Source: an uncultured Methanoregula sp. (lineage in GTDB: Archaea; Halobacteriota; Methanomicrobia; Methanomicrobiales; Methanospirillaceae). From it: a stretch of DNA of 64,000 nt. The notes under the pieces were generated by a model. It searched no databases. It was given only the letters and a program-made list of their open reading frames with translations, and had not been told where the DNA came from. Of this stretch, positions 28,783 through 30,462 are shown piece after piece. The first letter of the stretch is position 1; every line of letters starts with the position of its first letter. The stretch covers positions 1,220,153-1,284,152 of the forward strand of contig NZ_OY759744.1 in NCBI RefSeq assembly GCF_963662735.1, in the 5' to 3' direction. Both the position numbers and the translations under genes were made by a program.

Positions 28783-29520
28783 TTATACCTGTGTCATCAA
28801 TTTCTGGAGAAGGAACAGCAGCATCACAAATACGGTTATACCTGCTACGAGGCCGTAAAGAATACCGATATCCCGTCCAATTTTTCTTCCAACACGCTGT
28901 GCGATTTCCGCATCCACGAACTCGATCTTCTTCTCGATCTTGTCGAGTCTCTTCTCGATTTCGAGGAACTGTGGGTTTGCGCTTGCAGCGCCAACTTCCT
29001 GCCCACCGGCAGCTTCCTTGACTTCAACGACAATAGCGTCGGCAGCGAACGCGCCCGGGTCACGGGCCTTGAGTTCGTTGATCTTCGCCTTGATAGCGTT
29101 GATGTCTTCGCTTTCCATGATGTTGACGACTTCAACCTGTTCCTGGAAGCGCTTGATAGCTGCATCGTTGAGGTTCTCGATGAAAGGAATAGCACCTTCA
29201 GCACCGACGACCCTACCTTCTTTGACACCGCCCTTGTGGAGGGCGACGAGGGTCTGGCCTGAGAGGTGACCTTTCACTTCGGTACCTACGAGCAGGATGA
29301 ACCGGATGTTGGGGTTGGCGATGACGTTGGCGATAACCTTCTCAAGACCGAGGTTCTCGGTCTTGCAGGAACCGCAGAGTGCCGCGCCTGCATCACAGAT
29401 GCCCTGTTCATCGAGGTGTGAACCCATGGTGACAACAGCGACTGGGCTGTTAGCGTCACCTGAGTGGAAGTCTCCCTTGACGAGCGGCCATCCACTTGCT
29501 GGTGATTTCTTGTCTGCCAT
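28783..29520 (-). CDS. MtrA-MtrG fusion: second corrinoid domain joined to Mtr subunit G
   Basis: 245 aa from the ATG at 29520 (GAGGTGA upstream). Residues 1 to about 171 equal the cytoplasmic corrinoid-binding domain of the adjacent MtrA, including His85 in VGTEVKGHLSGQTL, the equivalent of the lower cobalt ligand. The last ~70 residues are MtrG: NPQFLEIEKRLDKIEKKIEF, then GILYGLVAGITVFVMLLFLL as the membrane helix. The gene holds the MtrG place between mtrF and mtrH. The MtrA part matches mtrA over about 515 bp with only a few base differences, implying recent duplication or gene conversion. It could add a second methyl-carrying corrinoid arm to the complex. Confidence 0.9.
   Translation of the reverse strand: MADKKSPASGWPLVKGDFHSGDANSPVAVVTMGSHLDEQGICDAGAALCGSCKTENLGLEKVIANVIANPNIRFILLVGTEVKGHLSGQTLVALHKGGVKEGRVVGAEGAIPFIENLNDAAIKRFQEQVEVVNIMESEDINAIKAKINELKARDPGAFAADAIVVEVKEAAGGQEVGAASANPQFLEIEKRLDKIEKKIEFVDAEIAQRVGRKIGRDIGILYGLVAGITVFVMLLFLLQKLMTQV
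29006..29520 (-). repeat. Near-identical duplicate of mtrA coding DNA (copy 1, inside MtrA-MtrG)
   Basis: This 515-bp stretch equals 29948-30462 at an offset of 942 bp. Differences seen by eye are few: around 29012 (GCTTCC versus GCCTCC), 29025 (aatAgcg versus aatGgcg) and 29472 (tcTccc versus tcCccc). Confidence 0.88.
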
Positions 29521-29530
29521 CTTGTTCACC

Positions 29531-29734
29531 TCATCCTACCAGTAATGCCGGCAGCACGATCATGATCAGTGCGAGGAGCAGGCCGGCCACGAAGCCGACT
29601 AACCCTGTTGCAGTGACTGCCGAGTCAATCTTGTTGGTCCTTGCAAGGATCTGTGACTTGTAGCGGATGTTCTCCACCATGTTGTCGATAGCCACCATCC
29701 TGACAGGTCCTGTTGATTTTGCGTCTTCAGCCAT
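29531..29734 (-). CDS. mtrF: Tetrahydromethanopterin S-methyltransferase subunit F
   Basis: 67 aa from the ATG at 29734. GGGGTGA precedes it; an in-frame GTG nine bases upstream is part of that site. The N-terminal MVAIDNMVENIRYKSQILAR and the single C-terminal membrane helix (GLVGFVAGLLLALIMIVLPA) are those of MtrF, a homologue of the MtrA C-terminal part. Between mtrA and the fusion gene. Confidence 0.9.
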   Translation of the reverse strand: MAEDAKSTGPVRMVAIDNMVENIRYKSQILARTNKIDSAVTATGLVGFVAGLLLALIMIVLPALLVG

Positions 29735-29739
29735 CTTTT

Positions 29740-30462
29740 TCACCCCAGCATTAAGAATCCGACCAGGGCAAACGAGATGATCAGACCGATCATCAGGCCT
29801 TCGATCTTACCTGCATAGACCCCGGCGGCGAACTTGTCCCGGTACCCGATATCTGTAACCATCTTCTCGATGATTTTCATACGGGCCGTGATAAGTGCCA
29901 TTTCACCGGACAGCGGGCGTGCTTCTCCGGTTGCCTCTTCTGCGCCACCGGCCGCCTCCTTGACTTCAACGACAATGGCGTCGGCAGCGAACGCGCCCGG
30001 GTCACGGGCCTTGAGTTCGTTGATCTTCGCCTTGATAGCGTTGATGTCTTCGCTTTCCATGATGTTGACGACTTCAACCTGTTCCTGGAAGCGCTTGATA
30101 GCTGCATCGTTGAGGTTCTCGATGAAAGGAATAGCACCTTCAGCACCGACGACCCTACCTTCTTTGACACCGCCCTTGTGGAGGGCGACGAGGGTCTGGC
30201 CTGAGAGGTGACCTTTCACTTCGGTACCTACGAGCAGGATGAACCGGATGTTGGGGTTGGCGATGACGTTGGCGATAACCTTCTCAAGACCGAGGTTCTC
30301 GGTCTTGCAGGAACCGCAGAGTGCCGCGCCTGCATCACAGATGCCCTGTTCATCGAGGTGTGAACCCATGGTGACAACAGCGACTGGGCTGTTAGCGTCA
30401 CCTGAGTGGAAGTCCCCCTTGACGAGCGGCCATCCACTTGCTGGTGATTTCTTGTCTGCCAT
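29740..30462 (-). CDS. mtrA: Tetrahydromethanopterin S-methyltransferase subunit A
   Basis: 240 aa. Corrinoid-carrying subunit: residues 1-171 bind a B12 derivative (His85 as likely axial ligand), and the C-terminal helix anchors it (GLMIGLIISFALVGFLMLG). It shuttles the methyl group from MtrH to coenzyme M at the membrane. Standard length and place after mtrB. Its first 515 bp are duplicated in the next-but-one gene. Confidence 0.95.
   Translation of the reverse strand: MADKKSPASGWPLVKGDFHSGDANSPVAVVTMGSHLDEQGICDAGAALCGSCKTENLGLEKVIANVIANPNIRFILLVGTEVKGHLSGQTLVALHKGGVKEGRVVGAEGAIPFIENLNDAAIKRFQEQVEVVNIMESEDINAIKAKINELKARDPGAFAADAIVVEVKEAAGGAEEATGEARPLSGEMALITARMKIIEKMVTDIGYRDKFAAGVYAGKIEGLMIGLIISFALVGFLMLG
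29948..30462 (-). repeat. Near-identical duplicate of mtrA coding DNA (copy 2, in mtrA)
   Basis: Partner of 29006-29520. The identity ends abruptly at the codon for Gly in KEAAGG, where mtrA continues with its own linker and the other gene passes into MtrG. Confidence 0.88.

What the first reader, a model, noticed from the sequence alone, without database searches (positions are those of the whole stretch)
28783..30462. MtrG is replaced by an MtrA-MtrG fusion with a near-identical copy of mtrA
The gene in the mtrG position begins with ~171 residues identical to the adjacent MtrA corrinoid domain (including His85) and ends with the MtrG coiled helix and membrane anchor. The DNA match is about 515 bp at a 942-bp offset with only a few differences, while the rest of both genes differs. 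So the duplication is recent or kept uniform by gene conversion. A methyltransferase complex with two corrinoid arms, one tethered through MtrG, would differ from the known Mtr architecture and its subunit ratios.
Basis: partly seen in the sequence, partly recalled or inferred. Interest (0 to 1): 0.88.

Follow-up and report, generated by a model that had tools for sequence, protein, structure and literature searches.

The report
MtrA–MtrG fusion with second corrinoid arm
This methane-making archaeon carries, in place of its small membrane subunit MtrG, an MtrG fused to a near-identical second copy of the vitamin-B12-carrying subunit MtrA, which would likely give its sodium-pumping methyltransferase two B12 arms per unit; the fusion is real, but it was already described for this order of archaea in 2015.

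Summary
The mtrG position holds a 245-codon gene (ATG 29520 to stop 28783, minus strand): an MtrA corrinoid domain followed by the MtrG helix and membrane anchor. Its first 518 nt differ from mtrA at four sites, all synonymous; identity stops abruptly in the linker. It is no artefact: in 121 of 121 loci of the order examined, MtrA sequence runs in front of MtrG.

It is not new. Wang et al. 2015 (PMC4632066) named it mtrA-2b, found it in all eight Methanomicrobiales they had, and explained the identity by long-lasting gene conversion.

Additions here: (1) homogenisation is not universal: 64 of 98 within-genome pairs are sister sequences, 19 of 98 are under 90% identical. (2) In groups where the copies have drifted apart, the MtrG-borne domain is still under strong purifying selection (median dN/dS 0.04-0.09), and His85 is kept in 98 of 98. 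So the second arm is very probably used. (3) The window's linker has no start codon for a short MtrG. (4) Connectase, the ligase that acts on the MtrA linker, was not found in this genome, so arm-swapping by it is unlikely here.

A two-arm complex remains biochemically untested.

The parts
28783..29520 (-). MtrA-MtrG fusion gene (mtrA-2b), 245 aa, replaces stand-alone mtrG
   Evidence: Pfam PF04208 and PF04210 both above cut-off in one frame; NCBIfam TIGR01111 and TIGR01149 both above cut-off
29527..29532 (-). GAGGTG, likely Shine-Dalgarno of the fusion gene; overlaps the mtrF stop codon
   Evidence: sequence
29020..29520 (-). MtrA corrinoid domain of the fusion (residues 1-167), His85 kept
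29003..29520 (-). homogenised tract, copy in the fusion: 514 of 518 nt equal to mtrA
29945..30462 (-). homogenised tract, copy in mtrA
29050..29064 (-). RDPGA (residues 153-157), counterpart of the KDPGA site on which Connectase acts in other methanogens
   Evidence: Connectase itself not found in this genome
28978..29019 (-). linker between corrinoid domain and MtrG helix (residues 168-181); no in-frame start codon in codons 158-194
28786..28977 (-). MtrG helix and membrane anchor (residues 182-245)
   Evidence: PF04210 match; aligns with the MtrG chains of 9qtq and 8q3v
29740..30462 (-). mtrA (mtrA-1), 240 aa, corrinoid domain plus its own membrane anchor
29531..29743 (-). mtrF, 70 aa, between the two copies
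27728..28765 (-). mtrH, 345 aa
30464..30757 (-). mtrB
30759..31607 (-). mtrC
31618..32457 (-). mtrD
32454..33353 (-). mtrE

Best explanation
The gene is the MtrA-MtrG fusion known as mtrA-2b, which stands in for mtrG and is predicted to hang a second, working corrinoid arm on the MtrG anchor of the Na+-pumping methyltransferase Mtr. Shown: one open frame joins a full MtrA corrinoid domain, a short linker and the MtrG helix; no other MtrG match is in the genome; the corrinoid domain is kept nearly identical to that of mtrA at the DNA level, including silent sites, while everything behind it differs; the arrangement is old and order-wide. Inferred: both arms carry cobamide, collect methyl groups from MtrH and deliver them to coenzyme M at MtrCDE, so that an Mtr(ABCDEFG)3 complex would have six arms instead of three. 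The stalk helices have their N-termini in the cytoplasm, so an MtrA domain placed in front of MtrG lies on the correct side of the membrane. Inferred: gene conversion between the copies, with selection on the protein, keeps the arms interchangeable because they must dock at the same two partner sites.
For: Fusion and absence of a separate mtrG. Order-wide: 121 of 121 loci examined, of 179 genomes with an MtrG match among 232 searched. Outside the order but inside the phylum, 92 listed MtrG rows have frames of 73-143 aa (listing capped) and the 54 rows of the 53 remaining genomes 57-140 aa: too short for this fusion. Homogenisation: own other copy is nearer than any other genome's in 66 of 98 pairs; 64 of 98 pairs are sisters on a tree. 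Function of the second arm: in the three groups that hold the drifted pairs, copies on MtrG still show median dN/dS 0.038, 0.070 and 0.091, like the mtrA copies (0.057, 0.084, 0.088); of 72 near-invariant MtrA positions, copy 2 departs in 1 of 576 and 2 of 576 cells in two drifted groups. His85 in 98 of 98 copies 2; the segments around His85 and at 109-115, which match the modelled MtrH contacts of the 2024 structure paper, are kept. N-termini of MtrA, B, F, G lie in the cytoplasm (PMC10998594, passages). Published precedent.
Against: No protein-level evidence: no proteomics, stoichiometry or corrinoid content for this complex was seen. 34 of 98 pairs are not sisters and 19 of 98 are under 90% identical, so uniformity of the arms is not required everywhere. 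The fused linker is short (13-16 residues) and lacks the first ~10 positions of the MtrG family, which in the solved complex belong to a short segment pairing with MtrB; reach of the second arm is untested. I did not run GENECONV.
Confidence: 0.75

Rival explanations
1. The fused protein is made, but its MtrA domain is only a structural or spare part: it stabilises the stalk or serves as a template for repairing mtrA by gene conversion, while methyl transfer runs through the ordinary MtrA arm alone.
For: No biochemical proof of a second active arm. In homogenised genomes conservation of copy 2 could be carried over from mtrA by conversion.
Against: In the groups that hold the drifted pairs the fused copy still has dN/dS 0.04-0.09 and keeps His85 and the near-invariant positions; a mere spare would be expected to decay there.
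Confidence: 0.15
2. The fusion is processed after translation, or a short MtrG is made from an internal start, so the complex has ordinary MtrG and a soluble extra MtrA domain.
For: The linker carries an RDPGA sequence close to the KDPGA motif that Connectase cleaves and re-ligates in other methanogens.
Against: No in-frame ATG, GTG or TTG in codons 158-194 of the window's fusion (but 65 of 98 loci have an in-frame ATG in the stretch, mostly at residue 163). Connectase (PF09894) had no candidate in this genome, and it re-ligates rather than releases.
Confidence: 0.07
3. Recent local tandem duplication in this genome, or an assembly error, rather than an old fusion kept uniform by conversion.
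For: 99.2% identity over 518 nt taken alone looks recent.
Against: The same fusion at the same operon position in 98 of 98 complete loci of the order; independent recent origin in each would be needed. The MtrG and anchor parts are diverged as old genes are. The window lies in a single-contig genome.
Confidence: 0.02
4. Connectase swaps corrinoid domains between the two anchors, and this need for exchangeable parts is what holds the copies alike.
For: [KRN]DPG-type site in both copies of every readable pair; pairs under 90% identity occur in 0 of 28 genomes with Connectase and 19 of 70 without.
Against: Connectase not found in the window's genome, whose copies are 99% alike. K versus R in the motif is not linked to Connectase (Fisher p 0.36 for each copy). 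On the tree only 4 independent pairs are available, 0-2 in favour, none against: no significance is possible.
Confidence: 0.05

Closest known systems
mtrA-2b, the MtrA-MtrG fusion of Methanomicrobiales (Wang et al. 2015, G3, PMC4632066)
   Same: same operon position between mtrF and mtrH, same domain order, MtrA domain without its own anchor, near-identity to mtrA-1 confined to the corrinoid domain
   Different: nothing in kind; this is another genome of the same order. Homogenisation here (99%) is above the published order mean of 92.4%
mtrA-2a, the MtrA-MtrF fusion of Methanococcales and Methanocella arvoryzae (same paper)
   Same: second MtrA domain in the mtr operon, homogenised with mtrA-1
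   Different: fused to MtrF, not MtrG; described there as an independent origin
Canonical Mtr complex, M. marburgensis (PMC10998594; PDB 8q3v) and M. mazei (PMC12774963; PDB 9qtq)
   Same: corrinoid domain and MtrG helix both align with solved chains
   Different: there MtrG is a separate chain of 86 and 72 residues; one corrinoid domain per protomer
Connectase and its MtrA recognition site (PMC10154401, PMC11961121; passages)
   Same: both copies carry the site in the form RDPGA at the end of the corrinoid domain
   Different: Connectase family PF09894 not found in this genome

Membership tests
mtrA-2b (MtrA-MtrG fusion of Methanomicrobiales) | second MtrA domain inside the mtr operon, between mtrF and mtrH | tested here: met
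mtrA-2b (MtrA-MtrG fusion of Methanomicrobiales) | MtrA domain lacks its own anchor and is fused at its C-terminus to MtrG | tested here: met
   PF04208 and PF04210 above cut-off in one frame
mtrA-2b (MtrA-MtrG fusion of Methanomicrobiales) | no separate mtrG in the genome | tested here: met
   one PF04210 match in G000
mtrA-2b (MtrA-MtrG fusion of Methanomicrobiales) | corrinoid domain more like own mtrA-1 than like other species | tested here: met
   99.0% to own copy, 91.6% to the nearest other genome of the set
mtrA-2b (MtrA-MtrG fusion of Methanomicrobiales) | gene conversion significant by GENECONV | not tested
   GENECONV was not run; tree and identity tests instead
working corrinoid arm of Mtr | cobalt-ligating His85 present | tested here: met
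   copy 2: 98 of 98; copy 1: 96 of 98, the other two a gap and a masked residue
working corrinoid arm of Mtr | binds cobamide and transfers methyl groups within the complex | not testable with these tools
   needs purified complex
Connectase substrate system | Connectase encoded in the genome | tested here: not met
   PF09894: no candidate in G000; 73 of 232 order genomes match; control rings in M. jannaschii and M. acetivorans
Connectase substrate system | KDPGA recognition motif | tested here: inconclusive
   RDPGA in both copies of the window; effect of K to R on the enzyme unknown to me

The most novel reading that the evidence does not exclude
The Mtr complex of this order is a six-armed machine: each protomer has two equal corrinoid arms on different anchors, so that one can reload at MtrH while the other drives coenzyme M methylation and Na+ export at MtrCDE; gene conversion keeps the arms equal, and some lineages have since let them specialise.
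Probability: 0.4. Interest if true: 0.65.

Novelty: already known. Interest (0 to 1): 0.36.

Why it matters
Mtr is the Na+-pumping step of methane formation, and both solved structures that I saw passages of come from organisms with separate MtrG. If a whole order has twice as many corrinoid arms per complex, current models of one arm per pump do not cover it, and methyl loading and Na+ export could overlap in time. The lineages in which homogenisation has lapsed but selection on both arms persists give a natural way to ask what each arm does. There is also a practical point: the near-identical 500-bp repeat breaks short-read assemblies at this operon (18 of 20 short-frame loci examined end there), so mtrA and mtrG look missing or truncated in many draft genomes.

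Tried and rejected
Assembly artefact or chimera: rejected, see 121 of 121 loci. Of the 20 short-frame loci, 18 run off the contig end and two are broken inside the fusion (L149 by a frame change, L158 by masked bases); three of the 18 (L145-L147) hold only some 3-10 residues of MtrA tail, so for those the evidence is thin.

Stand-alone mtrG elsewhere in the order: none seen, but 58 of the 179 genomes with an MtrG match were not fetched, and 53 of 232 had no MtrG match at all (8 of the 135 good-quality genomes among them); I did not look into those. The 100 loci were chosen for long frames and good assembly, so 98 of 98 is not a random sample.

Connectase as the cause of homogenisation: the raw contrast (0 of 28 versus 19 of 70) is suggestive, but it fails on independence (4 pairs) and does not apply to the window's genome.

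Internal start for a short MtrG: none in the window; in other genomes an in-frame ATG at residue 163 is common (65 of 98 have one somewhere in the stretch), but it also lies in the mtrA copy, so it says nothing specific.

dN/dS was by NG86 on codons 4-165; pairs with dS outside 0.05-2 were dropped, leaving 25 of 28 and 20 of 28 copy-2 pairs, and 28 of 28 and 24 of 28 copy-1 pairs, in the first two groups; 78 of 78 and 75 of 78 in the third. The near-invariant positions were defined on copy 1. In the third group only 3 of 13 pairs are under 90% identical.

Full report
Observation. The mtr operon of the window lies on the minus strand: mtrE, D, C, B, A, F, then a gene that joins MtrA and MtrG, then mtrH. 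The fused gene matches Pfam MtrA (275.9 bits) and Pfam MtrG (85.3 bits) in one frame. The likely start is ATG 29520, behind a GAGGTG that overlaps the stop of mtrF; this gives 245 residues. From that ATG, 514 of 518 nt equal mtrA, with four synonymous differences and one identical run of 437 nt; behind codon 173 the two genes differ throughout.

Is it real? The genome is one contig of 2.82 Mb and 99.85% complete, with a single MtrG match, and with two full MtrA copies here and a third, weaker MtrA-like gene elsewhere. I searched 232 genomes of the order: 179 have an MtrG match and 190 an MtrA match. I fetched 100 loci chosen for a long MtrG frame and 20 with a short one. With the window, 98 loci show both genes complete, and all 98 have mtrA-1 plus the fusion; 3 more are truncated and show the fusion. 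The 20 short ones end at a contig end inside the repeat (18) or are broken inside it (2), and in each the sequence in front of MtrG is MtrA tail. Outside the order, the 92 listed MtrG rows have frames of 73-143 aa and the 54 rows have 57-140 aa, so no such fusion was seen there.

Already published. Wang et al. 2015 (PMC4632066; [quoted passage not shown] They report 92.4% mean identity between the copies in Methanomicrobiales, sister clustering, and GENECONV support, and they argue for long-lasting gene conversion. A 2018 survey found it again (PMC6053082, passages).

What the larger sample adds. In 66 of 98 genomes the two copies are nearer to each other than to any other genome of the set, and 64 of 98 pairs are sisters on a quick maximum-likelihood tree. 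In the other 34 they are not; some of these are simply very close species pairs, but 19 of 98 pairs are under 90% identical. These 19 fall in three groups: all 8 genomes of genus code g13, 8 genomes of family code f6 and 3 of genus code g25. There the copies on MtrG resemble each other across species, so homogenisation has lapsed. This qualifies the published picture, which rested on eight species.

Does the second arm work? In a homogenised genome conservation of copy 2 proves little, because it is copied from mtrA. The drifted groups are the test. In g13, f6 and g25 the median dN/dS between species is 0.038, 0.070 and 0.091 for the fused copy and 0.057, 0.084 and 0.088 for mtrA. Of 72 positions nearly invariant in mtrA, the fused copy departs in 1 of 576 cells (g13) and 2 of 576 (f6), and in 13 of 7056 over all 98. 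His85 is present in 98 of 98 fused copies. The segments around His85 and at 109-115 correspond to the modelled contacts of MtrA with MtrH given in PMC10998594 (passages) and are equally kept in both copies. I conclude that the fused domain is under the same demands as the ordinary arm.

How it would work. In the M. marburgensis structure the complex is Mtr(ABCDEFG)3; MtrA, B, F and G form a stalk with their N-termini in the cytoplasm, and the corrinoid domain of MtrA is a disordered, mobile carrier that shuttles between MtrH and MtrCDE (PMC10998594, passages). In M. mazei an MtrH dimer sits at the stalk (PMC12774963, Discussion and passages). An MtrA domain put in front of MtrG therefore lies on the cytoplasmic side and could reach the same partners by a linker of 13-16 residues. 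The direct inference is six corrinoid domains per trimer. None of the sources that I saw measures this.

Connectase. This ligase acts on the MtrA linker at KDPGA (PMC10154401, PMC11961121, passages). Both copies in the window carry RDPGA in the homogenised tract. An exchange of corrinoid domains between the two anchors by Connectase would be an attractive reason for uniformity. But its family PF09894 has no candidate in the window's genome; it matches in 73 of 232 genomes of the order. K versus R in the motif is not linked to Connectase (p 0.36 for each copy). Pairs under 90% identity are confined to genomes without it (0 of 28 against 19 of 70), but only four independent comparisons exist on the tree, so this stays a lead.

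Verdict. A true observation of a known, order-wide gene fusion with known concerted evolution. Interest is moderate: the architectural consequence is still untested, and the lapsed lineages make it testable.

Noticed in passing
G000:C1:357183-357680 (locus L003, 1315-2031, minus): A third, anchorless MtrA-like protein of up to 238 aa (126 bits to PF04208) lies beside a membrane protein that looks by eye like an ACR3-type transporter; not tested.
   Followed up: partly
window 29740-30462: The anchor of ordinary MtrA gives a weak match to the MtrF family (20.4 bits, cut-off 22), a hint that the MtrA anchor and MtrF may be related.
   Followed up: no
window 27728-28765: MtrH has 345 aa against 314 positions in the family model TIGR01114, so it carries about 30 extra residues.
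   Followed up: no
L149 and other contig ends, e.g. L145-L148: The near-identical repeat breaks many short-read assemblies at the mtr operon, so mtrA or mtrG can look missing or frameshifted in drafts.
   Followed up: yes
L115-L119 region of the order survey: genomes G197, G199-G203, G206, G207: In genus code g13 the fused copy carries RDPGV or RDPGA and a tail unlike its own mtrA but shared between species, showing that conversion has stopped there.
   Followed up: partly
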